DNA from: Paenibacillus sp. Root52
GTDB lineage: Bacteria; Bacillota; Bacilli; Paenibacillales; Paenibacillaceae
Length of the DNA stretch: 64,000 nt
NCBI RefSeq assembly: GCF_001426865.1
Contig: NZ_LMFO01000023.1
Span: 310,001-374,000 of the forward strand
Direction of reading: 5' to 3'
Shown: piece by piece, positions 38,860 to 57,911 of the stretch
Layout: each line of letters opens with the position of its first letter
Position numbering within the stretch: position 1 is the stretch's first letter
Notes under the pieces: model-generated
The model's input: only the letters and a program-made list of their open reading frames with translations
What the model was told of the DNA's origin: nothing
The model's database searches: none
Program-made: the position numbers and the translations under genes

Positions 38860-38882
38860 ATGCATTCCTCCTCAAATGTGAC

Positions 38883-41267: not shown

Positions 41268-41275
41268 TCTAAGTG

Positions 41276-42103
41276 TTATTTGATCTCCGATTCCGTAGCG
41301 TCAAACCCAAGCCATTGCTCACTCAGTTGCTTCAATGTACCGTCCGCCTTAATTTCCTTCAGCACTTCGTCAACACGGTCAGCGAGCTTCTGCTCTTCAG
41401 GGTCATTTTTGCGGAACATAAACAGCGTGTCAGATTCACTAAGCGGCGCACCGACTAGCTTCAAATCGTTGTTAGGGTCAATCAGTGGAAGTGTAAAGTC
41501 GGCAGCAATCGACGCTGCAACCCGTTTCGACTTGAGTTGTGAGATGAAATCGTTGGCTACACCGCTTGAATAAACAATTTCAAGTGCATTGTCATGCTCT
41601 TTATTGTAGTTTTCCAGCAGGATCGCTTGTGCACTGGTTGCTGTCGTAAATACTTTTTTGCCCTTCAAATCGTCAATCGATTGAATGGCGTTATCGTCTT
41701 TGAGAACAGCAATTTTGTTTTTCCAATGTGAATATGCTTCTTTGTTAAACAGATACTTCTCCTCGCGCTCCGGATTTTTCTCCATTTGATGTGCAACCAT
41801 ATCAATCTTGTTCGTTTCTAGGCTCAGCAGTAAGTTAGTGAACTCCAAGGTCTGAAACTCGAACTCGTAATCATCCAGACGTTTATCAATTTCTCTGACC
41901 AGCTCTACGTCATAACCTGTCAGCTTGTTATTATCGTCAATAAAGGCTACATTCGGAAACTGCGTGCCTGTCCCTACAATAATTTTGGTCGGCGCCTGTG
42001 CTCCATCTGCCCCTGCTGCTGTCGGAGTTTCCTCCCCAGCGCTGCATCCTGTCAACGCCACAAGCAGTGCAGTAGTAACCGTTAAAAGTGACCATTTTTT
42101 CAT
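41276..42103 (-). CDS. amino acid-binding lipoprotein of the ABC importer (TcyJ/K-like)
   Basis: A lipoprotein signal (LLTVTTALLVALTGCSAG) precedes a cluster-3 binding domain: VGTGTQFPNVAFIDDNNKLT, GYDVELVREIDKRL. The 275-residue length from ATG 42103 (GGGGGAAATATTC upstream) is typical. It is the first gene of the operon and is followed by a family A insertion before the permease gene. An inverted repeat in the promoter region suggests a sulfur-responsive repressor. Confidence 0.88.
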   Translation of the reverse strand: MKKWSLLTVTTALLVALTGCSAGEETPTAAGADGAQAPTKIIVGTGTQFPNVAFIDDNNKLTGYDVELVREIDKRLDDYEFEFQTLEFTNLLLSLETNKIDMVAHQMEKNPEREEKYLFNKEAYSHWKNKIAVLKDDNAIQSIDDLKGKKVFTTATSAQAILLENYNKEHDNALEIVYSSGVANDFISQLKSKRVAASIAADFTLPLIDPNNDLKLVGAPLSESDTLFMFRKNDPEEQKLADRVDEVLKEIKADGTLKQLSEQWLGFDATESEIK

Positions 42104-42146
42104 GAATATTTCCCCCGTCATGTTGGTTATTATTTTTATACCACCA

Positions 42147-42169
42147 ATTCTTACTTGTTAAGTAGGAAT
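42147..42169. promoter_or_regulatory. 23-bp palindrome at the sulfur operon promoter
   Basis: ATTCTTACTT-GTT-AAGTAGGAAT is an inverted repeat with 9 of 10 positions paired in each arm. On the minus strand TATAAA follows at the usual -10 distance, so the palindrome covers the -35 region. It is a candidate operator for a CymR- or LysR-type sulfur regulator. Confidence 0.6.
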
Positions 42170-42267
42170 TATTCTAAAAGTATCATTCCCACTGATCCAG
42201 CGTCAACGGATTGCTTATAGATAAGTTCTATATGAAGATTCAATTATTGAATGTGTGCGAATACATT

Positions 42268-42416
42268 GCCGCAGCATCACGAGTGTATCGTAGTGATGGG
42301 ATGCCAAAAAGCGCCACGTTTGTATCGCCGTGGCGCTTCTTTTCTGCTGATGCATGATCCTAATCGGTCATGTAGCACAACAATCTAGGCTGCTGTACCG
42401 ACATGGCAGCAGCTTC
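42268..42416 (-). repeat. four-hairpin 3' module, family C copy 1 (includes a terminator)
   Basis: On the minus strand four hairpins follow one another: AGCTGCTGCC/CAGCAGC, CATGACC/GGATCATG, GCGCCACG/CGTGGCGC followed by TTTTTGG (intrinsic terminator, 42305-42339), and GCATC..ATCAC/CTCGTGATGC. The same order and much of the sequence recur at 57769-57908. It lies downstream of the GH30 gene and ends the supercluster transcript. Confidence 0.7.
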
Positions 42417-42477
42417 TTAATCTAGCAGCAGCGTGTAAAACTACCTCATCTACTGAATATGCCGCACAACATCACAC

Positions 42478-44031
42478 CTAGTTCAGCTTCACTACACCAG
42501 TCAAAGTCACTACCGATTGCTCCGGAATCGTAACGAGAAAGGATTGTTCATCGCCTGCCTTAACACACCCCATATTAACCAAATCCAGCCCGGCATTCGT
42601 CACGTAACATTCCAGTACGGAAACGACTCCGTTTAACCCCAGATTGTGAAGACTCAGCTGAATGCATTTGTCTCGTGTTCCATGGTTCACCAAGACCACG
42701 GTCACCGTCTGCTCTTCGTCATGCACATAGGCAGAGCCCAGCAATCCGCTGTCTGCTTCTTCACCAAGACCCGTCAGGCCGATTCTTTGTGCGCCGGGAC
42801 GAATGAACTTGCTGTAGTTGCCCAGCACCCACAACATTTTGGACGTTAAAATGTTCTGTTCATCGCCCTCCTCCTGAAAATCGGTGTAGATCAGTCCGTC
42901 CTTATAGTCCACTTTGGATACCGCCGTCCACCACTGCCACGCAGCCGCGTTGGCTTCCACTAGGTCAAAATGAATGGTCCGTGCAACATGCAGTGCAGGC
43001 TCCATGCCCAGATCCCGACCAGGGCCGTAATCGCCCAAAATGCAATATTCCGTCACCCAATATTTGCTGCTCGCATCATAATGTTTCATATTGTCATTCA
43101 ATAACCGTCTGAGTCGAACTAGCCGATCGTCACCCGGATGGCTATAATCCGACCAGTAGGAGTGTGAAGCTATTTTATTGCCCACCGCTTCCTTCATCTC
43201 GGGGTCACCAATCAGTGCCTTGATGTATTCCCGGTATTGGCCTGTACCCAGCTTGTTGGCACCGCTTGAATACGTACCACTGCCTGCAAACTGGCGATAA
43301 TACGCATCGTCCAGCAGTGATGTAATTTCCACCCCGTCAGGCGCACTGATCCGTGTTCCCAGATGGGTTAACCGCAATTGCCGATGCAACTCCAGAATAA
43401 CACGTCTCATATCCTCGTTGTTATAGCGATTGCCCTCTTGCCAAGCCTGGTTCCAGTCCCAGGTAGGCTCATTAATCGGGCTGATATAATCAAAGGACAG
43501 TCCGATCTCCTGAAAGTGCGTCAATATATGTAGGAGAAAAGCTGCAAATGCCCCCTCGTACCCCTGCTTCAGATTGGTTGAACCCACTTCGGAATCTGGC
43601 TGGGCATGACCGTTTTTGGTCATCCATACCGGCGGACTATTCACAAATGCAATGAGCGTCTCCACCCCCCGATCACGTGCAGCCTGCAGGAACCATTGTT
43701 GTCCGGACTGTTTGCTCCAGTCGTATTCTCCATCCTCCGACATTTTGAAAGCTTCTGCGCGTCTCCATGGATCGGGAATTAGGGCTTGATCAGTTACTGT
43801 GGAACCGGCACCAATATTGAAACGCCAAGCAGATAATCCGATGCCCTTCTCTCTCGAAAATAACAGATCCGCCAACCGGTTTTTATTCTCCTCAGTCCAA
43901 TGCTTGCCTAACGGTTCCATGGACCATGCATCCGATGCGCCAAAGTTATCCATCATCTGGTAGCGAAGCTCCCCACTAACCGTTACCACCGCATCCGGTG
44001 ACCCTTCTGACTTCGATAGCGTTTTCCCCAT
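42478..44031 (-). CDS. GH30 family glycoside hydrolase, cytoplasmic
   Basis: The 517-residue protein has the GH30 barrel: MMDNFGASDAWSMEPLGKHW, SPINEPTWDW (acid/base Glu188) and WVTEYCILGDYG (nucleophile Glu328), with a C-terminal beta-sandwich side domain. It resembles endo-beta-1,6-galactanase-like members, but GH30 also has glucanases and xylanases. There is no signal peptide, so it should cleave imported oligosaccharides. GAGGAGGATTCTAG precedes ATG 44031. It is the last gene of the supercluster. Confidence 0.88.
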   Translation of the reverse strand: MGKTLSKSEGSPDAVVTVSGELRYQMMDNFGASDAWSMEPLGKHWTEENKNRLADLLFSREKGIGLSAWRFNIGAGSTVTDQALIPDPWRRAEAFKMSEDGEYDWSKQSGQQWFLQAARDRGVETLIAFVNSPPVWMTKNGHAQPDSEVGSTNLKQGYEGAFAAFLLHILTHFQEIGLSFDYISPINEPTWDWNQAWQEGNRYNNEDMRRVILELHRQLRLTHLGTRISAPDGVEITSLLDDAYYRQFAGSGTYSSGANKLGTGQYREYIKALIGDPEMKEAVGNKIASHSYWSDYSHPGDDRLVRLRRLLNDNMKHYDASSKYWVTEYCILGDYGPGRDLGMEPALHVARTIHFDLVEANAAAWQWWTAVSKVDYKDGLIYTDFQEEGDEQNILTSKMLWVLGNYSKFIRPGAQRIGLTGLGEEADSGLLGSAYVHDEEQTVTVVLVNHGTRDKCIQLSLHNLGLNGVVSVLECYVTNAGLDLVNMGCVKAGDEQSFLVTIPEQSVVTLTGVVKLN

Positions 44032-44175
44032 CTAGAATCCTCCTCTTTTCCAGCCGAAGCAGCTACATGTACTTGCACTACAGGGGCCACGCTTTACAGT
44101 GGCACCCATGTAATTGCAAGCCTACTGTCCTAACCTTCCAGCCTCTTCTCTTTCAGCCATTCTCTATGTTCAGGT

Positions 44176-45189
44176 CTAGCCCACAAGTCCGGAACGCTCC
44201 ACACTCTCTACGAAATGTCGCTGAACGAACAGATAGATGATCAGAAGTGGCAGAATAGCCATCAGCACACTTGTATTCATCATCATCGACATGAAAAATG
44301 GATCCTGCGTGTACGATTCTGCGGCTTGCCCACCACCGGTCAGGTACGTTGCGATCGTATATCCGGAGGAAGACATCATCGACGACATAACCTTGGGCTC
44401 GTTTAGGTACATATTGGTGAAGAACGAATCATTCCATTGCCATACAAACGAAAACAGCATTACAGTAATCATGGAAGGTATTGCATTTGGTAAAATAATG
44501 CGTCCGAACGTCTTGAAATAGCCTGCACCATCAACGTATGCTGCTTCTTCAATCTCACGCGGAATGCCCCTGAAGAATTGGCGGAAAATGTATACGTACA
44601 GACCTGTTTTCACACCCATGCCCAATAATGCAGATATCAGGAACGGCCAGTACGTATTAATCAGATTCGCAGGACTGCCTCGAAACAGTTCAATCAAACC
44701 AAGCACATCAAAATTTTTAAAATTCAGATAGAGCGGAATCATGATCGTCTGTGAAGGAACCAAAATGGTAAAGATAACCGTGGCAAACAACAGACCACTT
44801 CCTCTGAACCTGATCCTTGCGAACCCATAGCCTGCCAGTACACACGTTATCGTCTGAAGCAGCATGACAGCAGTCGACAACCATAAGGTATTCATCAGCA
44901 CACTGGGGTAGTTCATTGCCGTGAATACCAATTTAAAGTTATCCAGCGTGAATTCGCGGGGTAACCAGATTACTGTCGGGTCATACAGATCGGACATACT
45001 TTTAAATGAAATTGATATCTTCAATAAAATGGGATACAGAATAACGAATGAAATGCCAAATATCAGGACGAATCGCACCAAAATCCACAGCCACTTTTTA
45101 ATGAATTCAAACCAGTAGGCAGTAGAAGTTAGGCGCTCTAGCCCTTCTTTTTTTGCAGTTCGCTGCCCTGATGCGGTTCCTGTCTTCAT
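44176..45189 (-). CDS. carbohydrate ABC permease, second pair (MalG type)
   Basis: Six membrane helices and the EAA loop EEAAYVDGAGYFKTFGRIILP identify a CUT1 permease; 337 aa with a long cytoplasmic N-terminus. AAGGAGGCATGAC precedes ATG 45189. It pairs with the permease immediately upstream. The segment between helices around GYTIATYLTGGGQAAESYTQ is longer than usual. Confidence 0.88.
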   Translation of the reverse strand: MKTGTASGQRTAKKEGLERLTSTAYWFEFIKKWLWILVRFVLIFGISFVILYPILLKISISFKSMSDLYDPTVIWLPREFTLDNFKLVFTAMNYPSVLMNTLWLSTAVMLLQTITCVLAGYGFARIRFRGSGLLFATVIFTILVPSQTIMIPLYLNFKNFDVLGLIELFRGSPANLINTYWPFLISALLGMGVKTGLYVYIFRQFFRGIPREIEEAAYVDGAGYFKTFGRIILPNAIPSMITVMLFSFVWQWNDSFFTNMYLNEPKVMSSMMSSSGYTIATYLTGGGQAAESYTQDPFFMSMMMNTSVLMAILPLLIIYLFVQRHFVESVERSGLVG

Positions 45190-45210
45190 GTCATGCCTCC
45201 TTCGGGAATG

Positions 45211-46110
45211 CTAATTCTGATAAAAGACCTTGCGAGACACAAGGGCAGTCGTTACCCACAAGATCAGTGCAATAACGGCAAAATATATCCAGGACATCGC
45301 CGCACTGAGCCCAAAATTAAAGCTCTTGAAGGCCGTATCCACAACAAGTCGACTGGTCTGGTCACTGATGAAGCTATCCACGATCGTGTAGACCAGATTG
45401 GTCAGAATCAATGGACTCAGCATAGGGAATGTAATCTTCCAAAAGGCTTCATATCCTGTCGATCCCTCGATCTTGGCGGCTTCATACAGTGAAGGTGAGA
45501 TCGACTGCAAGCCTGCAAGGAAAATCAGAATTTGTACTCCGGACTGACTGACAATCTCATAAATACGACTTACCGCACCTGTCAAATATTCAACTAGAAT
45601 CGGACTCATGCCGGATTCAAGCAGCATAATCGTCAGATCTAGATTTTTTAAGACAGACAGTCCCCCACCGGTCATATCATTGGCATTGCGTACAACGGAT
45701 TGCATCAAGTCCCCGTTTTCAATACTGGCAATGATGCCTGAGGCCAGAATGACTGGCAGAAAAAAGATCGCTCTTGCCAAAACCCGTCCGTGAAACTTCT
45801 GATTCAGAATGACGGCAAAAAACAGGCTGAAAATAATAATCAGTGGTGTATTTACCACAATATTCAGAACTGATTCCGTCAACATTCGTACATAGGATTC
45901 ATGGGATAACAGAGCCTCACGGAAATTGCCCAAACCGATAAACTCTAGGGTGAACCCTTCATTAGACACCTGTAGATTACTCAGACTGTATCGGAACGAT
46001 GAGATTAACGGCACCATGAACAGAAATAGGAACCCGATGAACCAGGGCAGAATGAAATACAAACCGTAATATCTGTTTTTTTGTTCAAGAGATAACTTTT
46101 TGAGTTTCAT
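45211..46110 (-). CDS. sugar ABC permease, second pair (MalF type)
   Basis: The 299-residue protein has FILPWFIGFLFLFMVPLISS as first helix and the EAA loop YEAAKIEGSTGYEAFWKITFP. Its ATG overlaps the stop of the DUF5696 gene (ATGA), so its synthesis is tied to that surface protein. The region QSVVRNANDMTGGGLSVLKN is an extended loop unlike the standard partner, suggesting specialised interaction. Confidence 0.88.
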   Translation of the reverse strand: MKLKKLSLEQKNRYYGLYFILPWFIGFLFLFMVPLISSFRYSLSNLQVSNEGFTLEFIGLGNFREALLSHESYVRMLTESVLNIVVNTPLIIIFSLFFAVILNQKFHGRVLARAIFFLPVILASGIIASIENGDLMQSVVRNANDMTGGGLSVLKNLDLTIMLLESGMSPILVEYLTGAVSRIYEIVSQSGVQILIFLAGLQSISPSLYEAAKIEGSTGYEAFWKITFPMLSPLILTNLVYTIVDSFISDQTSRLVVDTAFKSFNFGLSAAMSWIYFAVIALILWVTTALVSRKVFYQN

Positions 46111-48749
46111 TCCGGCATGTCACCCCCTCCTACACGGTAACTCTTCGCTGCCACACTTACGCCGTTAATGTTCGCAGCAACATCGTTGTAATTGACCATG
46201 ACCGTTTTTCCTTTTTCAAAAGTCGTCTGATAGACACCATCGCTCAGCTTCTCATGTTTCACAATAGTTTGATTCTGCACGTCGTTCAGGACATCGCTAA
46301 TCTGCTCGTACCGCTCGGCTGATTCCTGAATCCAGCGCCGATAATCTGCTGAATACAACTCGTCGAATCCAGTCATCTTAATGGCAGATGGATCCGCATA
46401 GAACCATGTGTAGTAAGGTGCTGATCCCGTTTCAATCGCTCGCAGCATCTGGACAAGAGAATACTGATCGTCAGCCATATTCCATGCTTTTCCCGCATAT
46501 TGGATGTAGCCGTGATATACCAGCTGGAAAAAGGGCACGGCTTCGTCGGTTATGTTAAAGCCGCTGTTACTCATAGGTGCATCGACAACATGCCGGGTGT
46601 AGGCACTTGCATACACATTGCCACCTTCCACAAGAAGTGACGCATCGGAATGATGCAGCTGCTCAAGCTGTTCGACTACAACCTTCTTCGCCTGCTCGCG
46701 ATTTACCACATTTGTACGATTGAAATCGGAGTTCAACTGATCGCCTAAATCTCGAAGGGACACCCCCGAAAGTCCTAGCCGTATATGATCTTGCATAAAT
46801 CCATCCACAATGCCAGGTACGGCTTGCGGGCTGACGACATATCCTGGTGAAGCCTCTTCATCCCGCGTAAATGTAGAGATCCGGTATGGGAACAACTGCG
46901 CAAGCTTGCCTGTAACTTGACGTGAAGCATATGATTTCTTGAACGCTTTAGCTTCTGGATACACCTCCAGAAAAGACACATCCGGGTAAAATCCGAAGCC
47001 ATTCTGCTCCGTGTAGGCCTGCAGGCTTTGCAAACCCTGAGCACCTCCTAGCTTCTTATCAACATCAATTGACTGAGGCATGTCGTGATGAATTCCTCCG
47101 TTAAACCACCCCGAGTAACGAAGCTGAATTTCGCTCACACCGTAGCTCTGCATCTCCTTCAAGATTTCCTGTGCTTCCTCAAAGGTTGTCAACGGCTCAT
47201 AGGCATTGTAGGGTATGCCCAGAAAGAACTTTTTCTTCGGAATACCGCCAATGAGTTCTACGTAAAACGGCAGTGCTGTGTCATCAGCCAAACGCGTCAG
47301 CTGCTTGTGCTCAACCAGATAATCCCGATACGTCGAAGCCATACCTGAATAGCTCGCATTGTCCGCACCCAGAAATTCAAAGACAACTGCCATCTCATTA
47401 TGAAAAGGCTGTGCCTGAAACCGTTTGACCGTGCTGGAACGCCATCCATTGGTGAGCGTAACTTCCTCCATACTGCTCAGCGTAAAGCTTGAATGCACCG
47501 TATTGTATTGATTCAATCTACCACTGATATCCGCCTCAACGGATGCGACCGCATCGCCTTTATCAATGATGGCTAAATACCCTTTGTTTCCGTAACTCAT
47601 GCCATACACAGGAATTCTAGCCTTCTGTTCCTTCTGAATCTGGGTGAGTTGATTAACAGCATGATCCCCACCATACAGGGTGGTGCTATACGGTGATGCA
47701 TGCGTCTTTTGGTTATTAAAATAAATCAGTGATCCTGATCCGTCCGGCACCAGACTGTATCCTTCTTCTGAAGGCCCGCTGGCACCGAAAAAAGGTAGCA
47801 GTGACAAGGATTGAATCTTCATGGAATCCGGATACTGGATACCGCCCTCAGGGATCGATACCCTCAGACGTCCATCTTCGAGTCGATAGTGCACTGGCAC
47901 GACGACATTCTCAAGCCCGCTCTCTCCCTCACCGTAGGCTTCCTTGTCAATCGCGATCTGCACCTCATCATAGTCAATGGATTCCAGAATTCGGGTTACT
48001 TTGGACAAACCAACACCTTTCAGAGACGAATCCCGTCTTTCGTAACGCTTGTTCTGCTCATCGTAACGAAAGCGCTTCTCTAACTCTTTCTGATCCTTTT
48101 CCTCCAGTTTCTCGAGGATTAAAGTCCTGAAACGTTCCTCGATAATATATTTGGGAATAGCTTCGATATCGCTATTGACTTCACCTAGCGTATACACGAT
48201 ATTAACGCCGTCTTCGACTTTTTCGATCTCAAACTGACCACTCTGAACACTATGTGTATAATTGTCGTATTTGAGCGCGTTGCCGGCGTTATCGTAATAC
48301 GTCAATTCGAGCTGTACATTCAGCTGGGACTTGTTATATCCGGTTGCGATGGCATCCTGTTCCCGATCCTGCGGATTGGAGAACCATATCTCACCATGCT
48401 GCTTATCGAGCGTCGCAATCTCTGTCGTTTCCGGCTGAAGATACAGAATCAGCTCTTCGTTTTCGGCGATAGCCTCCATACCATCAGGAACAGTTATTAC
48501 GTTGTGGCTTGCAGCTTGATTTGCCAGCTCTTTGGTTATGGATGGATCTGCGTCAGCCTGAATAGACTCTGTCGTCTTTTGCTCTGGTGATGCTTCTGTT
48601 TCGGCAACAGTGCTACGATGAGGTTGTTCAGACTCAACTGTTGTGGTCACCGCTCGTTCATAGACCGACTCTGCATAGTTGACATTTTGAGTCATTAACA
48701 AGCTGCCGATCATGATGGTTATGGCAAACATCGTACGACTTTTGTTCAC
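46107..48749 (-). CDS. DUF5696 secreted protein, glycoside-hydrolase-like barrel
   Basis: From GTG 48749 (AGGAGGTG upstream; 880 aa) a signal peptide (MFAITIMIGSLLMTQNVNYA) is followed by a Thr/Glu-rich linker, a beta-rich domain (about 75-330) and a barrel-like domain with GVSEIQLRYSGWFNGGIHHD, YPDVSFLEVYPEA and GVSLRDLGDQLNSDF. Acidic residues at strand ends resemble clan-type glycosidases. DUF5696 is widespread in Paenibacillus; no activity is established to my knowledge. It probably processes or holds glycans at the surface for the adjacent importers. Confidence 0.82.
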   Translation of the reverse strand: MNKSRTMFAITIMIGSLLMTQNVNYAESVYERAVTTTVESEQPHRSTVAETEASPEQKTTESIQADADPSITKELANQAASHNVITVPDGMEAIAENEELILYLQPETTEIATLDKQHGEIWFSNPQDREQDAIATGYNKSQLNVQLELTYYDNAGNALKYDNYTHSVQSGQFEIEKVEDGVNIVYTLGEVNSDIEAIPKYIIEERFRTLILEKLEEKDQKELEKRFRYDEQNKRYERRDSSLKGVGLSKVTRILESIDYDEVQIAIDKEAYGEGESGLENVVVPVHYRLEDGRLRVSIPEGGIQYPDSMKIQSLSLLPFFGASGPSEEGYSLVPDGSGSLIYFNNQKTHASPYSTTLYGGDHAVNQLTQIQKEQKARIPVYGMSYGNKGYLAIIDKGDAVASVEADISGRLNQYNTVHSSFTLSSMEEVTLTNGWRSSTVKRFQAQPFHNEMAVVFEFLGADNASYSGMASTYRDYLVEHKQLTRLADDTALPFYVELIGGIPKKKFFLGIPYNAYEPLTTFEEAQEILKEMQSYGVSEIQLRYSGWFNGGIHHDMPQSIDVDKKLGGAQGLQSLQAYTEQNGFGFYPDVSFLEVYPEAKAFKKSYASRQVTGKLAQLFPYRISTFTRDEEASPGYVVSPQAVPGIVDGFMQDHIRLGLSGVSLRDLGDQLNSDFNRTNVVNREQAKKVVVEQLEQLHHSDASLLVEGGNVYASAYTRHVVDAPMSNSGFNITDEAVPFFQLVYHGYIQYAGKAWNMADDQYSLVQMLRAIETGSAPYYTWFYADPSAIKMTGFDELYSADYRRWIQESAERYEQISDVLNDVQNQTIVKHEKLSDGVYQTTFEKGKTVMVNYNDVAANINGVSVAAKSYRVGGGDMPE

Positions 48750-48771
48750 CTCTGACACCTCCTTCCTTCTC

Positions 48772-49395
48772 CTATTTGCGCAGCGTGATCTCTTGATAGA
48801 GGGTGTACACAAAACTGATAATCTGTTGAATCAAGCTAAAGAAAAGCAGACCCAGAAAGATAACGATCCCCATAACAACCAGGGTGAGCAGCATCGTACT
48901 AATCGTTTTGATCACGGAATACTGATGTACCGTTTTGGTTCCTATAAAAAGCAGCCAGACAAACCAAATGACCCCTATTGAGTCAAATAAATAATAGAAA
49001 GAAGATTCACGCAGTGTAATCACATTACTCAGTAATATATTGGGAATGTTGATGAGAATAAGCGGGAGCATGGCATATCCCGTCGCGATCAGAATATCCC
49101 TGAACTTGCCTTCTCCGTCCATCAGCGTGGTCAGAGACCAATTGGAGATACACCAGAGCAGGAAGGGAAGAATGATGTACTTCAACTCATTGATACTGTT
49201 CAAAGAGAGTGGATCGTTGTCATTCACGACATATCCGGCGTACTGACGTTTCAGAATCATCGTTACGGTAACACCGAGCAGCACTAATAGCGCCACACGC
49301 AGCCTGCCTTTATTTTCATACTTCAGATCCCAGTATCCGTCGAATGGACGTACAGCGACATGTAGAGAGTATTTGATTTCCTTAATTAGCGACAT
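48772..49395 (-). CDS. YIP1 family membrane protein
   Basis: The 207-residue protein has five hydrophobic segments and the YIP1-type start (YSLHVAVRPFDGYWDLKYE, then VALLVLLGVTVTMIL). ATG 49395 with GAGAGGGGAG is chosen; it overlaps the end of the NHL-repeat gene by 14 bases. YIP1 proteins are found in several Paenibacillus carbohydrate clusters beside DUF5696; a scaffold or regulatory role in the membrane complex is a guess. Confidence 0.8.
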   Translation of the reverse strand: MSLIKEIKYSLHVAVRPFDGYWDLKYENKGRLRVALLVLLGVTVTMILKRQYAGYVVNDNDPLSLNSINELKYIILPFLLWCISNWSLTTLMDGEGKFRDILIATGYAMLPLILINIPNILLSNVITLRESSFYYLFDSIGVIWFVWLLFIGTKTVHQYSVIKTISTMLLTLVVMGIVIFLGLLFFSLIQQIISFVYTLYQEITLRK

Positions 49396-50821
49396 CTCGG
49401 GCTCCCCTCTCATTCCTCGATCTAGCGATTCGGCGCCAGATGATTAGGCTGACAAGCACTCCGATCGCCACCGTCATATAGATTCCGAAATATTCCCGCA
49501 TGTATTCTCTCCGATATTTCGCCAGAGCTCTGGAGTAATATTCCCGATCATTGCCAAGCTTCAGGTGGGTCATCGCTTCCTTGTACTTTCCTTCTCTCAG
49601 CATTGATTTGCCGATGCCTACATAGGCCATTTCATAGTTGGCGTCAAGTCGCAGCACCTCTTGCCACAACGTTGCAGCTTCCGAATGTTTGCCTGAGCTG
49701 TACAAACGATTGGCCTCGTTCACCAGGCCTCCAAATGTCGTCGGCTTGAATTCGGTGATCTGGCCAAGATCGCGATCCAGCACATAGATGGCGTCTCCGT
49801 AGCTTTCAATGGCTACCGGATTTTTGAATGTGCCTTTCTGATTACCTAGCTGACCAATCACATACAGTAAGTTGCCATCCTCGTTGTACGTAAACACACG
49901 CCCTCTCGTAGAATCGAGAGCACGGTAGACCCCATTGCCGGACACCTGAATATCAATGAAGGAGGAGCGATTAATACTCAAGTCCCCCACCGGGGCAAAT
50001 TCTCCGTTGACCCGAAGTACATCAATGCCGGAGGGATTCAATTTTTTTACCGCCGAAGCTGTGTTTTTGTCCGCTGTCGTTGTATAGATGAAACCGCCTT
50101 CATCAATATCTGCGTTATTGAACTCCAATGGAATAAAACGAATCATCTTTTCCCGCTGTTCCTTGGTGGACACGCTTTTCCAGAATAGATCAACCGGATC
50201 AAACTGCACACGATTCGTGCCCATAAACCCCGTAAAGCGCCCGTCACTATCGAATTCGATCAACCCTTCATAGACACCACGACCGACAACATAGATGCGC
50301 CCAGCCTTGTCAACGATCACTTTCCTGGGAAAATACTCAAATGTATCACTGATCACATCCGACTCCGGCGCACCAATGGCACGAACGAACGTACCGTCCG
50401 GATTCAGCTCCACGACTCGTCTGTTTTCGGTGTCGGCAACGTAAATCTGACCTGACTCCGTAACGAACAGCCCTTCAGGATTCAGAAAACTGTCCTCTTT
50501 GCCATCATGCTCAAAATGTTGGATGACTCGCATCGTTTCCCATTGATCGTTCAATACGACAATGCGTCCATTGCCTGAATCCAGGACGTAGAGCAAGCCA
50601 TTATGTGCAGCATACAAATCCAGTGGAGATTGCCATGCTCCCGTTCCGGCATCGTTACCCGTGATCACTCTGGAGGGGAGAAAAGCAATCGGAGACTTGA
50701 CCGAATTACCCCAGTAATTGTAGGTATAGCCCTCATACGGTGCCCCATAAGACACGTTATGTCCGAATCCGGAGATCAGCAGGGAAGCTGCCAGAACGAT
50801 TAGCCATGATCTTACTTTCAT
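49382..50821 (-). CDS. secreted NHL beta-propeller/TPR protein with C-terminal anchor
   Basis: A signal peptide (WLIVLAASLLISGFGHNVSYG) leads to a six-bladed NHL-type propeller (about 45-370; repeats such as GLLYVLDSGNGRIVVLNDQW and GQIYVADTENRRVVELNPDG), then a short TPR pair (about 375-440) and a C-terminal membrane helix (FGIYMTVAIGVLVSLIIW). The propeller faces outside, suited to bind glycans or partner proteins. GAGGGGGTGTTAGAG precedes ATG 50821. It lies between permease pair 1 and YIP1. Confidence 0.82.
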   Translation of the reverse strand: MKVRSWLIVLAASLLISGFGHNVSYGAPYEGYTYNYWGNSVKSPIAFLPSRVITGNDAGTGAWQSPLDLYAAHNGLLYVLDSGNGRIVVLNDQWETMRVIQHFEHDGKEDSFLNPEGLFVTESGQIYVADTENRRVVELNPDGTFVRAIGAPESDVISDTFEYFPRKVIVDKAGRIYVVGRGVYEGLIEFDSDGRFTGFMGTNRVQFDPVDLFWKSVSTKEQREKMIRFIPLEFNNADIDEGGFIYTTTADKNTASAVKKLNPSGIDVLRVNGEFAPVGDLSINRSSFIDIQVSGNGVYRALDSTRGRVFTYNEDGNLLYVIGQLGNQKGTFKNPVAIESYGDAIYVLDRDLGQITEFKPTTFGGLVNEANRLYSSGKHSEAATLWQEVLRLDANYEMAYVGIGKSMLREGKYKEAMTHLKLGNDREYYSRALAKYRREYMREYFGIYMTVAIGVLVSLIIWRRIARSRNERGARDVAN

Positions 50822-50838
50822 CTCTAACACCCCCTCAC

Positions 50839-51702
50839 TTAGTCCTTCATGCCGGATGAGGCCATTGTTTGGATGACTTGGCTCTGAGATAATACAAACG
50901 TCACGATCGGCACCGTCATCATGATGACAGCAACGGCAGCACCCACACCCGCACGAGCTATTCCCCCCTGAACAATCTGTCCCATGGCATAATGCATCGT
51001 TTTGAGCTGCTCACTGTAGATAAAGCTACCGCCATCCGTTCCCCACAACATCTGCATCATTAAAATCAGCAGCGTTAACCACGCAGGTTTGACAAGTGGC
51101 ATAACTACCTGAAAGAAAATCCGATATTCGCTGGCTCCATCCATTTTTGCCGCCTCCAGGAGCGCATCCGGTATTTGCTCCATAAACTGCTTCATCAAGT
51201 ACAGACCCAGCGGATAAGCGAAGGCGGGAATAATCATGGCCTGATAGGAATCGAGCCAGCCTAACGTGGACATGATCATGTAATTGGGAATAGCCGTTAC
51301 ATGCGGCGAGAACATCAGAGACAACACGATGATCGTGAACAGGATTTTGTGCCCGCGGAACTTGTATTTAGCTAGTGGATAAGCCGCCGCAGAGGCTAGC
51401 ATAATATGTCCGAACGTGCCTGCCGCAGTGATAAACACCGTGTTGAAAATATATCTTGAGAATGGAACCCATGAATTTTTCATCACCTGAAATAGATCTG
51501 AAAAATTCTCAAACGTCGGATTCCGGACAAACAGCGTTGGTGGGAAAATAAAAAGTTCATCCAACGGCTTAAACGCATTATTGATCACATAGATAAGCGG
51601 AATGACCATAAACGCACCAAATCCGCCGAGCAAAAGGAAAAGCAAGATATCGACCTGCCAGGACCTGTTGATTTTCCTTTTCATACGCAAGGCCATCTTC
51701 AT
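50839..51702 (-). CDS. carbohydrate ABC permease, first pair (MalG type)
   Basis: The 287-residue permease has six helices and the EAA loop LEAAKMDGASEYRIFFQVVMP. GTGGGGGAATAGCAG precedes ATG 51702, 3 bases after the stop of its partner. It forms the first of two permease pairs in the cluster. Confidence 0.9.
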   Translation of the reverse strand: MKMALRMKRKINRSWQVDILLFLLLGGFGAFMVIPLIYVINNAFKPLDELFIFPPTLFVRNPTFENFSDLFQVMKNSWVPFSRYIFNTVFITAAGTFGHIMLASAAAYPLAKYKFRGHKILFTIIVLSLMFSPHVTAIPNYMIMSTLGWLDSYQAMIIPAFAYPLGLYLMKQFMEQIPDALLEAAKMDGASEYRIFFQVVMPLVKPAWLTLLILMMQMLWGTDGGSFIYSEQLKTMHYAMGQIVQGGIARAGVGAAVAVIMMTVPIVTFVLSQSQVIQTMASSGMKD

Positions 51703-51705
51703 CTG

Positions 51706-52671
51706 CTATTCCCCCACTCTCTTTAACAGCTTTTGAACAAGCAGGTTGGAACCGAGCATCAGACTGAACAGCACCGTTGCAATGGCAGAAGCATAGCCCA
51801 TCTCGAATCGGATCGTTCCGTAATCCATCAAGTGAGTAACTATCGTATGCGCTCCGTACTGTACGCTCGGGAAACCTGCCAACGCAGTAGCCACTTCTGC
51901 AACGGCCAGGGATGAGGTAATCTGGATCACAGCTCCGAACATGAGCTGCGGACGCATCGAAGGCAAAGTAATATACCACAGCTCCTGCCAACGATTTTGA
52001 ACCCCGTCGATGCTTCCTGCTTCATACAAGGTGCGATCCACGGTTTGCAAACCGGCAATGAACGCAAGAAAACTGGTTCCAAGACTGAGCCATAGCTGTA
52101 CAAGCATAATGATCGCAAGCATGTATTTGGGATTCTGTAGCCACAGGATTGGCTCATAAATGATGCCTATTTTCATCAGGAACCCGTTCATAATGCCGTA
52201 CGAATCTCCAGAGAAAATAATTTGCCAAATAAAAAACACATTGCCTGAAATGGACGGTGCAAAAAAGATCAGTGTCATGAAGGCTCTCACCTTTGGATTC
52301 AGCTCATTAATAAGCCAGGCAAATACAAAGCAGGCAATGTAGCTAATTGGACCGGTGATCACCGAGAAAATAATTGTATTTTTAAGACCGATCAGAAACA
52401 CATCATCATTCCAGAGCAGCTTGGAGTAGTTCTCCCAACCAACCCACTCTGGAAACTCCAGCATGTTGAAATTGGTGAAGCTGAAGAAGGTGGAGATCAT
52501 GACTGGAAACACGGTAAACAAGAAGAATAACAACATGTAGGGTGAAAGAAGTATATAGAGATGCTTATCCCGCTTTATATCTCTCCTAAAGAGTTCCCAC
52601 TTCCCGGGTAAGCCGGCAGGCGTACGTTTGGGCTGAGAACCGGTTTTGGTCACCATATTAGCCTTCTGCAA
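51706..52671 (-). CDS. sugar ABC permease, first pair (MalF type)
   Basis: The 321-residue permease has LSPYMLLFFLFTVFPVMIST as first helix and the EAA loop YEAGSIDGVQNRWQELWYIT (with G in place of the second A). TTG 52671 is the likely start, 5 bases after GGGAGGGA; the next ATG is too far from it. It lies 12 bases after the large binding-protein gene. Confidence 0.88.
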   Translation of the reverse strand: MQKANMVTKTGSQPKRTPAGLPGKWELFRRDIKRDKHLYILLSPYMLLFFLFTVFPVMISTFFSFTNFNMLEFPEWVGWENYSKLLWNDDVFLIGLKNTIIFSVITGPISYIACFVFAWLINELNPKVRAFMTLIFFAPSISGNVFFIWQIIFSGDSYGIMNGFLMKIGIIYEPILWLQNPKYMLAIIMLVQLWLSLGTSFLAFIAGLQTVDRTLYEAGSIDGVQNRWQELWYITLPSMRPQLMFGAVIQITSSLAVAEVATALAGFPSVQYGAHTIVTHLMDYGTIRFEMGYASAIATVLFSLMLGSNLLVQKLLKRVGE

Positions 52672-52683
52672 AAGAGTCCCTCC

Positions 52684-55596
52684 CTAGTGCATTCCGTCCA
52701 ATTTAAACTCTTTTCGTTTCTCCTGAATTTCGTAGTTAATTTCCTGCACATAATCGTATAAGGCATCGGTGGAATTCGTCCCGTTATTGACGACCTCACG
52801 CAGAGCATTGTCCAGATGCCGACCCGTAAAATAACCTCCCGGAACCTCCGGAACACCCTGAAGCCATTCCCATTGTTCTTCGAGACTTCGATAATCGCGG
52901 ACAGGCCAAGGTAACTCCTGTAACGCTTCAATATTCGCCGTTGGATACCGCGCCGCCGCCCCCATCAGACCTTCCATTTCACGTCCGAAACGAACCTGTG
53001 CATCCTTGCTGACCCACCACTTCATAAATTCCCAGGCCGCATCCTTATGCTTCGATTGCTTAAGCATAACGGTTGCCGTACCTCCACTCGCGACATCTCG
53101 TTTGATACTTCCGTCTTGCTGCTTGAGGCCGGGAACCGGAATGAACTCCCATAACCCCTTGATCTCGGGCGCAGATACGGACAGATAGTTATAAAAGGTG
53201 TAATCCATAATACCTATAGGCATTTCTCCGGTTCTAAAGCGCATTGGAAAATCGAAGGTGAGTGGCAGCTTGTAACTGGTATAGAAATTCGTCCACTCCT
53301 TGAACGCCTCCAGCCCCGTTTCCGTATCCATACCGCTTTTGGAGCCATTGTCCAAATAAAACGAACCGCCCATCTGGTACAGCAGCATGGCATATGCCCG
53401 GTTCACTTCCAATACGGGTACACCTGTCGTTTGAGCAAGCGGCAAAGCCATTTCCATATTATGCTTCTGTAGCACCGGGATCATGGCGTAGACGTCCTCC
53501 CATGTCTGCGGCGGCTCCAGATCAAGCTGTTCCAAAATATCCTTCCGGTAAAATAACATATTGAATATTTGTTGCTCCGGCAGTGCAAATACTTGATCCT
53601 CATAGTTATAGGGAACCATCGCACTATCCCTGAACTGCCTAATTAACTCGTCATAGCCGGGATACTCGGACAGATCTTCTGCCGCGTTCCGCATTCCGAA
53701 GTTGACAGGCACATCATTTCCGACCTGCATGGCCACATCCGGCCCCTCTCCTGCCAGGGAAGCACGCAGCAAAACATCCGCATTCACCAGCTTGAGGTTC
53801 ACACTAATTCCCGTCAGCGGTGTAAACGTATCGTCAATCATGGCCTTCAACACCTGAGCCTGATCCCGGCCTGTACCAATCCATACCGTGACTGACTTGT
53901 CTTCATCAGATGTGCTGCCAATGGTGTCATAATCCTCGAAAAATGAATGGAAAAAAGACGAGATTTCGTGTCCAACTTTTCGGAAGGACGAATCATTTGC
54001 TTTCGGCAGTTTCTCATCAGGTGAAGCGAGCAACAGATAGTCAATTTCCAGTGGCTGTTCGCGCACCTCCAGAAGCCATGAGCCGACACTGCCTACATTG
54101 ATTTTGAATTGACCAAGCCGCTTCTGCACGGTTTCCGGCTTGTCGGCTAGATCGGCCAGTTGATAGGCTGTTTTAGTCAATATCGCGGTCTTATCACTTT
54201 TTTCCCCCGTTAAACGAATTAACTCTTCAGATACGGCATTTAGAATGTCACTTTGTTCGCGAAACACCTTCACCATGTCTGGAATCTGCTTCTCTAATTG
54301 ATAATCCCGATAGGGGTCAGGTACGTTACCTGTGATCATCAGAATTTTGCGATACATCGCATTGATATCGAGCACACTGGCTTCCACCTGACGGATCAGA
54401 GGCGCAATCGCTCCCAGACTGACCTCAAGCTGCAATTCATGTTTTCCTTCGGTCAAATAAAATAAGTAGGGTTCGTCCTCGCTGCCAAGCATATTCATCT
54501 GCCAATTCGAGTCATAGAAGAACGGAATTTGCATCATTTCACGGAAGGGAACCTTATTGTCGATCTGCAGCGAACGGGTGGAATAGATCCCCCTCAGCAG
54601 TTCCTGCCTACCTTTGATCGCAATCTTGTATAGTCCATCCTCCGGCACATCCATTTCCCATGCAATCCATTGTCCTGGCACACGCCAGTTGTTTCCGCCG
54701 ATGGTGTTCATTCTGATTTTGGATACATCGTACGGTTCTGTGGATGTGCTTGATCGATCAGTGATTGGATACAACGTTGGTGATGACTTGTACTTGGCAT
54801 GCTCACCTTGAACTTTGATCAAGTGTCCACTGGTTTCCGTATATCCCTGTCTCTCATACTCCTGCTTCACTTCTGCATAGGATATCGGTTCTTCATACTG
54901 GTGTAGCCTAATCGAATCAATAACCATAGGCTCCCGGGTGGACACAAGCGTCAATGAGTGTTTGCCTGCAGAAAAATAAAACTGGTAAGGCTCCTCATAA
55001 TAGCCCTCCTTGTCTCTCAGAAGAGATTCTTGCCACATCGGTGCCTCCGTCTGACGTGGGCGCAGGTCGTTACCTCTGTTATCTTGTTCGATCTCGGATT
55101 TCTCGTTGACCCATACACGATGAAAACTCAGATTACGTGCGCTATTAAAAGGCAACTTGCCATCGATCCATAGTTCACGTTCTATTGCGGAACTTTTACC
55201 CTGGATCGGGTAATAACGCAAAGTCATGTGATACATGCCCGATTCAGGAACATCCACTTCCCATTGCACTGAACCGCTCTCCTCTGTTCTTATGAACTTG
55301 CCAGTCTCGCCACCAAGCTCCGTGACCATCTTCGGTTCCATTCCTTCCGCAGCTGTGTAGTCAGCTCCGCGAATAACAATTTCCCTGGAAGGCTGCTTCT
55401 CGTTCTGGAATTGCTGCAAATAATAATCGTAGCTACCCTCAGAAGCAGATTCAGAGATTGGCATCACACGGCTCGGATCTGATGTTCGATTCCCGGACTT
55501 TGCATTGCCGCTTGCACCGGAACTGGATATCGTGTACACCATGACGAGGATTAGCATAACGACGATAAGCGTCACTCGGGATAATGTAAACTTCAC
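52684..55596 (-). CDS. membrane-anchored sugar-binding protein with N-terminal carbohydrate-binding-like domains
   Basis: At 970 aa it is twice the size of a normal binding protein. An uncleaved-looking N-terminal helix (VTLIVVMLILVMVYTISSSG) without lipobox is followed by two beta-sandwich repeats resembling CBM35/CBM6 (about 70-245 and 275-420; SGMYHMTLRYYPI and DGLYKIAIKGRQ), a helical linker (430-560), and an extracellular solute-binding domain (about 575-930; VTVWIGTGRDQAQVLKAMID). GTG 55596 follows AAAGGGGGGCATCGG. It may catch polymer chains and hand them to the permeases. Confidence 0.85.
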   Translation of the reverse strand: MKFTLSRVTLIVVMLILVMVYTISSSGASGNAKSGNRTSDPSRVMPISESASEGSYDYYLQQFQNEKQPSREIVIRGADYTAAEGMEPKMVTELGGETGKFIRTEESGSVQWEVDVPESGMYHMTLRYYPIQGKSSAIERELWIDGKLPFNSARNLSFHRVWVNEKSEIEQDNRGNDLRPRQTEAPMWQESLLRDKEGYYEEPYQFYFSAGKHSLTLVSTREPMVIDSIRLHQYEEPISYAEVKQEYERQGYTETSGHLIKVQGEHAKYKSSPTLYPITDRSSTSTEPYDVSKIRMNTIGGNNWRVPGQWIAWEMDVPEDGLYKIAIKGRQELLRGIYSTRSLQIDNKVPFREMMQIPFFYDSNWQMNMLGSEDEPYLFYLTEGKHELQLEVSLGAIAPLIRQVEASVLDINAMYRKILMITGNVPDPYRDYQLEKQIPDMVKVFREQSDILNAVSEELIRLTGEKSDKTAILTKTAYQLADLADKPETVQKRLGQFKINVGSVGSWLLEVREQPLEIDYLLLASPDEKLPKANDSSFRKVGHEISSFFHSFFEDYDTIGSTSDEDKSVTVWIGTGRDQAQVLKAMIDDTFTPLTGISVNLKLVNADVLLRASLAGEGPDVAMQVGNDVPVNFGMRNAAEDLSEYPGYDELIRQFRDSAMVPYNYEDQVFALPEQQIFNMLFYRKDILEQLDLEPPQTWEDVYAMIPVLQKHNMEMALPLAQTTGVPVLEVNRAYAMLLYQMGGSFYLDNGSKSGMDTETGLEAFKEWTNFYTSYKLPLTFDFPMRFRTGEMPIGIMDYTFYNYLSVSAPEIKGLWEFIPVPGLKQQDGSIKRDVASGGTATVMLKQSKHKDAAWEFMKWWVSKDAQVRFGREMEGLMGAAARYPTANIEALQELPWPVRDYRSLEEQWEWLQGVPEVPGGYFTGRHLDNALREVVNNGTNSTDALYDYVQEINYEIQEKRKEFKLDGMH

Positions 55597-55707
55597 CCGA
55601 TGCCCCCCTTTAGCAGACTGTAGTGAATTAGATAGACGGCCCGCATATCGATTTTGGGATGAAATCAGAAATGAGGCCGTCCTGTTTGTTAACGCAGATT
55701 TCTCGAA

Positions 55708-57117
55708 CTATTTTTTCTCGGGCTGTTCCCCGCTTAACACTTTTTTCACCGCAGCCTGTGCAGGTCCGATAACCTGGGCAACACCTGTTGAAGGTGTAAT
55801 CTCGCCTTTGATGAATTTCTCAGTTACTTTGTCCAGTTGATCCTTAATGCCCAGACCACCAAAGCGACCACCAAACAGACGCTGCACCTGGCCATTATCA
55901 TTCATCGCGTTGGCAATGGATGCTTCGTCCGGCAAAATATTCTCGAGCGAGAGCCTACGGTTATCTTGCCAGTTATCGAAGTCTTGCAGATCTTCCCAAA
56001 TCTTCACGATCACATCTGCATCCTTCACTCCCTTTGGAACAACGTAAGCTGTAGCCTGACCGAATGGTTCGTAATACGACTCCGCTTGAGGTCCCTTCGG
56101 CATGTATACATAACCCCACTCATCCTTCATCTTATCTAGAATCCGGCCTTCGATCTCCCAGAGTCCACCCGGATACATGGCAATGGTGCCTTCCCCGAAG
56201 AACTTGGCTGGATCTTCCCAGTCGTTACCTCCGTTGGCCTTCACCACTTTGTGCTCATTGTACAGACCATGCAGAAAATTAAGCGCTTCCATAGATTCGG
56301 GTGAATCAAACGTCACTGTACCTGTTTGCTCATCATATAATTTGCCTCCGTTGCTCGCGACCAGCATCTCAGAAAGTACGTAATGCGCTCCAGCCAGTCC
56401 GTATTGATCCATTTTACCGTCACCGTTACGATCAACCGTTAGCTTTTTCGCCGCATCCAGCATCGTATCCCAGTTCCAGTTATCTTCGTCCATCAATTGC
56501 TGCGGGTCTTTCAGACCAGCCTCCTTGAATATACGCTTGTTGTAGAACATGCCACTATCATTAGGTGTATACCAGCTTTCGAGTCCGTACACCTTGTCGC
56601 CTCCAAAGCGCATAGCATTAACAACATCCTGCTCCACACGAGTATCTTGAAGGTAGTCATCCAGCGGTGTCAGAAAACCACTCTGCATAAGTCCCCAGAT
56701 AAATCCATCAGGAACCCGGACTATTTCAGCAAATGGCTCGTTCGCGAGCACAGAGGAGGACAGCTTTTCAGAGGTAGACCAATATTCTGTATTCAAATAT
56801 TTGATCTTTACGTTATACTTTTCTTCCACCATTTGAATACGCTCGCGGGCAAGTTCATCTGATTCTGAATCCCCTTTTGGTGTAGCATCCCACCAGTGAG
56901 AAATTCGAATAACACGGCCGTCTAAATCTGGCGCCGGCACAGCTTCTTCCTTGTCCTCTTCCTCTTCCTGCACTGGTGTTGTGTTCGTCTCTACTTCAGC
57001 TGGTTGAGCAACTGGATCGGCTGGTTTGTCATTTGTACCACTGCATGCAGACAAAAGCATCATTAACGTGGCAAATAACACGAACATCATCATTGGTTTA
57101 GACATCATTTTTTTCAA
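55708..57117 (-). CDS. extracellular sugar-binding lipoprotein
   Basis: A lipoprotein signal (MMFVLFATLMMLLSACSGT, Cys about residue 25) leads to an acidic linker and a cluster-1 binding domain (RVIRISHWWDATPKGDSESD, AMYPGGLWEIEGR). The start is TTG 57117 or ATG 57108; GAGGGAGG fits the TTG better. It is the first gene of the supercluster, 111 bases before the large binding protein. Its promoter region holds a LacI/CcpA-like palindrome. Confidence 0.88.
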   Translation of the reverse strand: MKKMMSKPMMMFVLFATLMMLLSACSGTNDKPADPVAQPAEVETNTTPVQEEEEDKEEAVPAPDLDGRVIRISHWWDATPKGDSESDELARERIQMVEEKYNVKIKYLNTEYWSTSEKLSSSVLANEPFAEIVRVPDGFIWGLMQSGFLTPLDDYLQDTRVEQDVVNAMRFGGDKVYGLESWYTPNDSGMFYNKRIFKEAGLKDPQQLMDEDNWNWDTMLDAAKKLTVDRNGDGKMDQYGLAGAHYVLSEMLVASNGGKLYDEQTGTVTFDSPESMEALNFLHGLYNEHKVVKANGGNDWEDPAKFFGEGTIAMYPGGLWEIEGRILDKMKDEWGYVYMPKGPQAESYYEPFGQATAYVVPKGVKDADVIVKIWEDLQDFDNWQDNRRLSLENILPDEASIANAMNDNGQVQRLFGGRFGGLGIKDQLDKVTEKFIKGEITPSTGVAQVIGPAQAAVKKVLSGEQPEKK

Positions 57118-57249
57118 AATGGGCGGCCTCCCTCAAGTAAATGATCTTAATCTGTTCCAGTGCAAACGTGAGCGCCATAGCCTGTTCAGCTTCTCAATTG
57201 CCGTTCAGGGTGTTCGCTCCTTTCTTGAAATGACTGAATTATGCAGCGG

Positions 57250-57263
57250 GTTAAGCGCTTACA
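57250..57263. promoter_or_regulatory. LacI/CcpA-type operator upstream of the supercluster
   Basis: On the minus strand TGTAAGCGCTTAAC contains the perfect palindrome TAAGCGCTTA and agrees with the cre consensus at 12 of 14 positions. It lies about 130 bases before the first gene. It could bind CcpA or a LacI-family regulator encoded elsewhere. Confidence 0.55.
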
Positions 57264-57296
57264 AATATTGAACAAAGTACACTTCTAGGTGTTGGA

Positions 57297-57371
57297 TTAT
57301 GTACCTTCACCACCCCAGCCATCCATATCGATTCCTCGCAAAGTGATCTTTTCTTTGGGCTCAAACTTCAT
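57297..57371 (-). CDS. 24-aa ORF with ribosome site, unassigned
   Basis: ATG 57371 is preceded by GAGGGGGAG with long spacing (about 11 bases) and encodes MKFEPKEKITLRGIDMDGWG followed by GEGT and a stop. It lies upstream of the supercluster promoter region in the same direction. It might be a leader peptide, a truncated gene or chance; the composition is protein-like (charged, ending in a Gly-rich tail). Confidence 0.35.
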   Translation of the reverse strand: MKFEPKEKITLRGIDMDGWGGEGT

Positions 57372-57768
57372 CCTACACACGCTCCCCCTCAAAGTTGATA
57401 ACATTGAATCAAGCTTACAAAATGCTTTTTGATGACTGCCCTGAACAATCTGACTCATTACAAGGCCGCCTTAATGGGATTTGAAAACCTAGATTCACAC
57501 TTCGCTTTGAAGAGCACTAGCCAAGTTGTTGAGTATACTTGAAAAGGATTTCATGAAACCCATTTCATTTATAGTATTATTAAAATCCTTAAGTCAGTAC
57601 ACATTCTGATATTTTTTATAATTTTTTAGTCTTGTTGTTTCATTCCACAGCATTTCCTTGCATTTGCGGCCTGTACTTTGCAAGCCACATATGGTTATGG
57701 TGCTGTGTCAAAGAGGTAGCACCTCAACGTATTGGGTCGTGTATTAATTACTGCGGTACTCGTAATTG

Positions 57769-57908: not shown

Positions 57909-57911
57909 CTT

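What the first reader, a model, noticed from the sequence alone, without database searches (positions are those of the whole stretch)
42478..57117. A 14.6-kb carbohydrate supercluster with two importers and a surface machine that I cannot match to a known system
Nine minus-strand genes with close spacing or overlaps encode two binding proteins (one lipoprotein, one 970-aa anchored fusion), two CUT1 permease pairs, an NHL/TPR anchored propeller, a YIP1 protein, a DUF5696 GH-like secreted protein and a cytoplasmic GH30 enzyme. No ATPase or regulator is included. The co-translation of DUF5696 with permease pair 2 (ATGA) and of the NHL protein with YIP1 (14-base overlap) suggests a physical complex for capturing and trimming a polymer. 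This is a Gram-positive analogue in concept to polysaccharide utilisation loci, but with components of unknown function.
Basis: partly seen in the sequence, partly recalled or inferred. Interest (0 to 1): 0.8.

Follow-up and report, generated by a model that had tools for sequence, protein, structure and literature searches.

The report
Reusable double sugar importer gene cassette
A set of ten neighbouring genes encodes two sugar importers, extra surface proteins and one enzyme; relatives keep the importer part fixed and swap the enzymes, and a shared gene switch suggests that here the food is plant galactan.

The parts
55708..57117 (-). SBP469: lipoprotein-type solute-binding protein, probably the binding protein of importer 2 (P2a/P2b); survivor of a tandem pair
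   Evidence: Pfam SBP_bac_1 2e-25; in several Clostridia a homologue sits directly after P2b
52684..55596 (-). SBP970: N-terminal anchor/signal, two beta-sandwich (CBM35-like) domains, helical domain, C-terminal MalE-type binding protein; importer 1
51706..52671 (-). P1a: CUT1 permease, importer 1
   Evidence: BPD_transp_1
50839..51702 (-). P1b: CUT1 permease, importer 1
   Evidence: BPD_transp_1
49382..50830 (-). NHL propeller + TPR, probably outside, with one C-terminal membrane segment (447-465)
   Evidence: Pfam NHL/TPR; hydropathy
48772..49413 (-). YIP1 membrane protein (a second possible start is ATG 49395); homologues fused to NHL in 38 of 121 loci
   Evidence: Pfam Yip1 1.3e-15; fusions
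46107..48812 (-). DUF5696: secreted GH129-fold protein; D688 and E729 align with the GH129 catalytic pair; likely start GTG 48749
45211..46110 (-). P2a: CUT1 permease, importer 2, ATGA overlap with DUF5696
   Evidence: BPD_transp_1, sequence
44176..45189 (-). P2b: CUT1 permease, importer 2
   Evidence: BPD_transp_1
42478..44031 (-). GH30 enzyme without a hydrophobic N-terminus (probably cytoplasmic), nearest structure 3clw (GH30_4); the exchangeable part
57540..57567 (-). two adjacent inverted repeats TGAAA-N4-TTTCA, predicted operator of a LacI-type regulator
57297..57371 (-). remnant start (MKFEPKEK..., 24 codons and stop) of a deleted first tandem binding-protein gene, kept in L073-L075
   Evidence: blastn of the leader against L073-L075

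Best explanation
It is a modular double importer. Shown: a fixed eight-gene core made of importer 1 (SBP970, P1a, P1b) and a second module (NHL, YIP1, DUF5696, P2a, P2b, usually with SBP469), followed by exchangeable enzymes. Inferred: a membrane-anchored GH30_5-type endo-beta-1,6-galactanase encoded elsewhere in the same regulon cuts type II arabinogalactan outside; SBP970 and SBP469 catch the oligosaccharides; NHL-YIP1 holds the outer parts at the membrane next to the permeases; DUF5696, with both GH129-type carboxylates in this clade, trims or binds alpha-linked decorations; both permease pairs are driven by the genome's single MalK/MsmX-type ATPase; the cytoplasmic GH30 cleaves the imported chains. 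A LacI-type repressor coded on another contig controls both loci through TGAAATGGGTTTCA.
For: Order in 117 of 121 loci; SBP970 and strong DUF5696 in the same 82 of 149 genomes. Modules shown by the swapped order in 4 of 20 phylum-wide regions and by 4 with the second module alone in the stretch, two of these cut by contig ends. Enzyme class changes 9 times on the DUF5696 tree against at least 44 in 200 shuffles, n=74. Published twin XDL: induced on xylan, XynR/AraR regulon, growth defect after deletion of the shared MsmK (PMC8579813); its operator found exactly in L179. One OB_MalK ATPase in this genome; in 6 of 121 loci a MalK-like ATPase gene stands before SBP970 (Pfam run on one of the six). 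Operator: in 14 of 15 GH30-type loci; 3 exact sites in 6.6 Mb, at the cassette and, as a pair, behind a LacI gene and before SBP-permeases-GH30_5-type-GH35; in the genus all 13 genomes with the cassette's GH30 have it 13.2-16.4 kb upstream of that gene, and all 24 listed second GH30 frames of 499-546 residues have it within 4.2 kb; reversed-pattern control 0 of 75 genomes.
Against: No expression, binding or enzyme data for this organism. The cassette's GH30 is nearest to 3clw (GH30_4, uncharacterised), not to GH30_5. Within the window alone the operator is weak evidence (2 sites, 0.23 expected, 3 of 100 shuffles have 2 or more). The aligned catalytic pair of DUF5696 is missing in 100 of 141 sequences, so catalysis by it cannot be the general role. 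L063 and some Clostridia have the second module without importer 1 in the stretch read. The other two copies in this genome have no recognised glycosidase gene directly behind them. Which binding protein serves which permease pair is inferred from position.
Confidence: 0.6

Rival explanations
1. Two independent importers that happen to be co-transcribed; NHL-YIP1 and DUF5696 are accessory proteins of importer 2 alone and no joint complex exists.
For: Importer 1 and the second module are separable: swapped order in L180, L185, L187, L189 and second module alone in the fetched stretch of L172, L173, L174, L190 (the last two are cut by contig ends) and L063. C. bescii authors name them as two CUT1 transporters (PMC8579813).
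Against: In 149 Paenibacillales genomes SBP970 (E 1e-60 or better) and strong DUF5696 matches are not found one without the other (82 both, 67 neither); 123 of 150 listed places lie within 10 kb of each other (6.2-8.0 kb).
Confidence: 0.4
2. DUF5696 is a true exo-alpha-glycosidase in every cassette, using another acid/base residue where E729 is lost, as suggested for ZgDagB.
For: GH129 fold over model residues 114-901; E794 in 120 of 121 and D696 in 116 of 121; DagB keeps only Asp435 of the two NagBb residues and is active (PMC5698469).
Against: The Asp itself is lost in 27 of 141, also in the C. bescii locus published as GH129 (L179).
Confidence: 0.3
3. The substrate is not galactan but another GH30_4 target, for example a fucosylated or xylan-type glycan (GH30_4 activities recalled, not from a call).
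For: Nearest structure to the cassette's GH30 is the uncharacterised GH30_4 protein 3clw, E 1.2e-71, against 4.7e-6 for the GH30_5 enzyme 24td.
Against: Shared rare operator with a GH30_5-type and a GH35 gene in the window's genome, and operators near the 24 listed second GH30 frames of the genus.
Confidence: 0.3

Closest known systems
[quoted passage not shown] xloEFG-X-GH129-axoFGE-xyn genes) of Caldicellulosiruptor/Anaerocellum bescii
   Same: Same eight parts in the same order, no ATPase gene inside, LacI-family regulator, enzymes behind the core (PMC8579813, PMC12285236 passages; L179)
   Different: Enzymes are GH43 and xylanases named in PMC8579813; SBP469 homologue stands after P2b; NHL and YIP1 fused; DUF5696 lacks both aligned catalytic residues; operator is that of XynR
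GH129 alpha-N-acetylgalactosaminidase NagBb (5wzn) and ZgDagB/ZgGH129 (5opq, 8rzk)
   Same: Fold of DUF5696 over nearly its whole length; Asp435 aligns with D688
   Different: 13-19% identity; catalytic pair kept in 41 of 141
CUT1 importers with a shared MsmK/MsmX ATPase
   Same: Two permeases plus binding protein, no own ATPase (PMC8579813)
   Different: Two such importers in one conserved block with extra surface proteins; one binding protein with CBM35-like domains
SusCD-type polysaccharide utilisation loci
   Same: Concept: capture, cut, import in one locus with exchangeable enzymes
   Different: No SusC or SusD domain reported for the ten proteins by Pfam

Membership tests
XDL-type double CUT1 locus (Xlo/Axo) | gene order xloEFG-X-GH129-axoFG | tested here: met
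   window order equals L179, whose leader carries the published XDL operator
XDL-type double CUT1 locus (Xlo/Axo) | xylanolytic enzymes behind the core | tested here: not met
   window has a GH30 of the 3clw type and another operator. So: same cassette, not a xylan locus
XDL-type double CUT1 locus (Xlo/Axo) | induction on xylan | not testable with these tools
   needs transcript data
GH129 | GH129 fold | tested here: met
GH129 | nucleophile Asp (Asp435 of NagBb) | tested here: met
   D688 just behind strand 683-686; D in 114 of 141; placed by moving a 3-residue gap of the hhalign alignment, so a reading, not the printed alignment
GH129 | acid/base Glu (Glu478 of NagBb, recalled) | tested here: inconclusive
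   E729 aligns with the Glu of Paenibacillus GH129 relatives but is E in 45 of 141
GH129 | alpha-glycosidase activity | not testable with these tools
   needs enzyme assay
CUT1 ABC importer | permease pair and MalE-type binding protein | tested here: met
CUT1 ABC importer | MalK/MsmX-type ATPase | tested here: inconclusive
   one OB_MalK ATPase elsewhere in the genome; use by this importer not shown
GH30_5 endo-beta-1,6-galactanase (for the cassette's GH30) | closest to GH30_5 sequences | tested here: not met
   3clw (GH30_4) 245 bits against 28.7 for 24td; the regulon partner L198:10185-11678 does fit: 24td 230.7 bits, next 107.1
SusCD polysaccharide utilisation locus | SusC/SusD pair | tested here: not met
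   no such Pfam domain in the ten proteins

The most novel reading that the evidence does not exclude
The core is one physical machine: NHL-YIP1 is a membrane hub that docks a catalytically worn-down glycosidase fold (DUF5696) as a glycan receptor over two ABC channels, so that a long branched glycan is handed from a CBM35-like binding protein to both channels; evolution retargets it by exchanging enzymes while the hub stays.
Probability: 0.3. Interest if true: 0.85.

Novelty: new variant of a known kind. Interest (0 to 1): 0.6.

Why it matters
It shows that one conserved importer block is reused with different enzymes in Bacilli and Clostridia, which lets substrates be predicted from the plugged-in enzyme and the operator. 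It puts a testable role on unnamed or loosely named parts of a published locus (gene X = NHL-YIP1; 'GH129' = DUF5696, probably without GH129 catalysis in C. bescii). It also gives a concrete candidate regulon for beta-1,6-galactan in the window's genus.

Tried and rejected
Rejected: 'unmatched system' (XDL is the same core). Rejected: substrate from the GH30 name alone. First thought, dropped: that the Asp of HLDGW in NagBb is the nucleophile and DUF5696 therefore always dead; PMC5698469 (passages and section 7) names Asp435, and one search places it in AYLDVF. Rfam found nothing in 41000-58500 at gathering scores. Consensus promoters (30, shuffles 26.4) and terminators (17, shuffles 12.7) are near the shuffled means and were not used. 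A generic LacI-type pattern is not enriched in the window (5 matches, 2.68 expected). PMC4765114 (passages): 0 occurrences of NHL or Yip1. Paper searches without a match to this system: DUF5696 (0 papers); NHL/YIP1/ABC/Paenibacillus (2 listed, unrelated by title); NHL/solute-binding/GH/Firmicutes (0); YIP1/NHL/permease/GH129 (0). The library is open-access only, so absence from print is not shown. Athe_0181, reported as a noncatalytic protein that helps hydrolysis (PMC10492685, passages), is by counting from Athe_0174 the binding protein after P2b; this is inference, and the printed operon (14 genes) and tag range (12) do not agree in number. GH30_4 activities, NagBb Glu478 and the CBM35 nature of 5x7g are recalled. 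The fold search of SBP970 was filled by its binding-protein part; its N-terminal domains were not folded alone.
Full report
Observation. The minus strand of 42478-57117 carries ten genes, not nine: SBP469, SBP970, P1a, P1b, NHL/TPR, YIP1, DUF5696, P2a, P2b, GH30. The quoted overlaps exist, with one proviso: the 14-base NHL/YIP1 overlap needs the second ATG of YIP1. DUF5696 probably starts at GTG 48749 behind a strong ribosome site. The next genes downstream are an amino-acid-type ABC importer and a luciferase-like monooxygenase, the first 356 bases away.

Conservation. I took 40 stretches around DUF5696 from Paenibacillales genomes (picked by hand from the listed hits for spread), 80 named loci (best 80 of 574), and the window. 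By profile search on stop-to-stop frames, 117 of 121 have the eight genes SBP970-P1a-P1b-NHL-YIP1-DUF5696-P2a-P2b in this order and strand, and 103 of 121 also have SBP469 in front; five more have it behind P2b. In that script permease pair 1 was sought only before and pair 2 only behind DUF5696, so their side was imposed; with plain labels of picked frames and no such rule, 98 of 121 have all eight (order printed). Of the four exceptions, L038, L134 and L148 are cut by contig ends; L063 is a real one within 20 kb. The set is redundant: 111 sequences below 95% identity, 75 below 70%, 29 below 50%. The test is conditioned on DUF5696, so I turned it round: SBP970, searched by itself, is in 82 of 149 genomes at E 1e-60 or better, and DUF5696 matches of E 3.5e-88 or better are in the same 82. 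Dropped before this count: nine genomes whose only DUF5696 matches are E 1.2e-6 or weaker; three of the 85 genomes over Pfam's own cut-off are among them. Of the 150 listed DUF5696 places, 123 have SBP970 within 10 kb (6.2-8.0 kb), 8 at 10-60 kb, 19 none nearer or none on the contig in a truncated list. In the phylum, 37 of 398 genomes have DUF5696 at E 1e-30. Of 20 regions read there, 11 keep the order, 4 have the modules swapped (L180, L185, L187, L189; one permease unlabelled in two of them), 4 show only the second module in the stretch (L172, L173, L174, L190; the last two are cut by contig ends), and one (L188) was not resolved.

Parts. Spacing is tight: on longest frames NHL and YIP1 overlap in 74 of 75 separate pairs, DUF5696 and P2a in 95 of 119. 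NHL and YIP1 are a single reading frame in 38 of 121 loci, separate in 81, and in 2 cut loci only one was seen; on the DUF5696 tree the state changes 6 times against at least 24 in 200 shuffles (104 rows), so fusion or fission happened several times. SBP970 is slower than DUF5696 (47-92% against 35-79% identity to the window); its model (pLDDT 85.8) has two beta-sandwiches, a helical part and a MalE-type binding protein. A profile of the first two meets 5x7g at E 7e-6 (that this part is a CBM35 is recalled); Pfam CBM_35 is below its cut-off.

Exchangeable enzymes. The genes behind P2b fall into many families, by Pfam of one representative per cluster: GH30, GH26, GH10, GH38, GH43, GH2, GH95, GH106-like, ricin-lectin proteins, a GDSL hydrolase, regulators, further importers. 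For 74 rows with an assigned class (first recognised of two genes, eight classes), the class changes 9 times on the DUF5696 tree, at least 44 in 200 shuffles. The two other copies in this genome (L033, L034) have only frames of 245, 201 (DUF1349) and 117 residues directly behind P2b.

Known twin. PMC8579813 (passages) describes the C. bescii xylan degradation locus with operon xloEFG-X-GH129-axoFGE-xynF-xynE-..., two CUT1 importers, predicted XynR and AraR control, induction on xylan, and a growth defect on oligo- and polysaccharides after deletion of MsmK, the ATPase presumed shared. PMC12285236 (passages) gives the XynR operator in front of Athe_0174 and tests it in vitro. That 20-base operator occurs once in L179, 150 bases before its SBP970 frame; behind the core L179 has a GH43 protein with CBM_4_9 and CBM_6 and a further CBM_4_9 protein cut by the end of the stretch. 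PMC5658599 (passages) reports upregulated XDL transporter genes Csac_2412 and Csac_2417-2419, whose spacing fits the same block. So the finding's own condition for loss of novelty is met in part.

Power and control here. The genome has one ATPase with the MalK OB domain (ATPases without that domain would be missed). In six divergent loci a similar ATPase gene is the one before SBP970 (Pfam on L060 only). GH30-type relatives mostly have a LacI-type gene directly upstream: 10 of the 12 GH30-type loci whose flank reaches there, read from the sequences; not L076, unclear in L085. TGAAATGGGTTTCA, on either strand, is upstream in 14 of the 15; in L081 it stands before the LacI gene and only a variant before the cassette; the fifteenth, L075, begins inside this region. 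The window has the site at 57554-57567 next to a similar one; within the window this alone is weak (0.23 expected). The exact site occurs three times in 6.6 Mb: here and twice at C30:209853-209880, 115 bases behind the end of the gene that is the best LacI homologue (61% identity, next 36%). Behind it follow a binding protein, two permeases, a GH30 with a hydrophobic N-terminal segment whose nearest structure is the GH30_5 endo-beta-1,6-galactanase 24td (230.7 bits, next 107.1), and a GH35 protein. In the genus the site is in 52 of 75 genomes, the reversed control in 0 of 75. All 13 genomes with the cassette's GH30 (72% identity or more) have it 13.2-16.4 kb upstream of that gene; for 5 of the 13 I saw the cassette itself (window, L039, L045-L047). 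All 24 listed second GH30 frames of 499-546 residues have it within 4.2 kb; I take these for counterparts of the GH30_5-type gene by length and distance and did not classify them singly, and I left the longer GH30 frames (566 residues and more) of that list out. This makes beta-1,6-galactan, as in type II arabinogalactan, the best guess for the substrate. It is inference from regulation, not an assay.

A deletion. L073, L074 and L075 have two binding-protein genes in tandem (broken in two frames in L075). In the window the leader and the first codons of the first remain and the rest is gone.

Verdict. A real, conserved, modular double importer; the same core is in print for xylan in one thermophile group; the general cassette, the loss of the GH129 pair and the galactan regulon were not found in the paper searches made. 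A physical complex is plausible and unproven.

Noticed in passing
window 57912-62030: A low-GC stretch (0.35-0.37) upstream of the cassette with SUKH (SMI1/KNR4), DUF6756 and weakly EbsA-like genes, which resembles an array of toxin-immunity genes.
   Followed up: no
window 57297-57371: Remnant of a deleted tandem binding-protein gene with its leader and ribosome site kept.
   Followed up: partly
window 37849-42121: Amino-acid-type ABC importer (SBP_bac_3, two permeases, ATPase) with a luciferase-like monooxygenase, apparently unrelated to the cassette.
   Followed up: no
L033 (G000:C23:225500-245499) and L034 (G000:C1:301300-321299): Two further complete copies of the cassette in the same genome without a recognised glycosidase gene directly behind them; L033 has a DUF1349 gene.
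   Followed up: partly
L179 (C. bescii): The gene published as GH129 in the xylan locus lacks both aligned catalytic residues.
   Followed up: partly
L178:4687-6012: A 442-aa frame on the other strand interrupts P1b of a Caldicellulosiruptor-like cassette, possibly a mobile element.
   Followed up: no
G563:C1:1781366-1782912: In one relative of the genus the cassette's GH30 is split into two frames by a stop.
   Followed up: no
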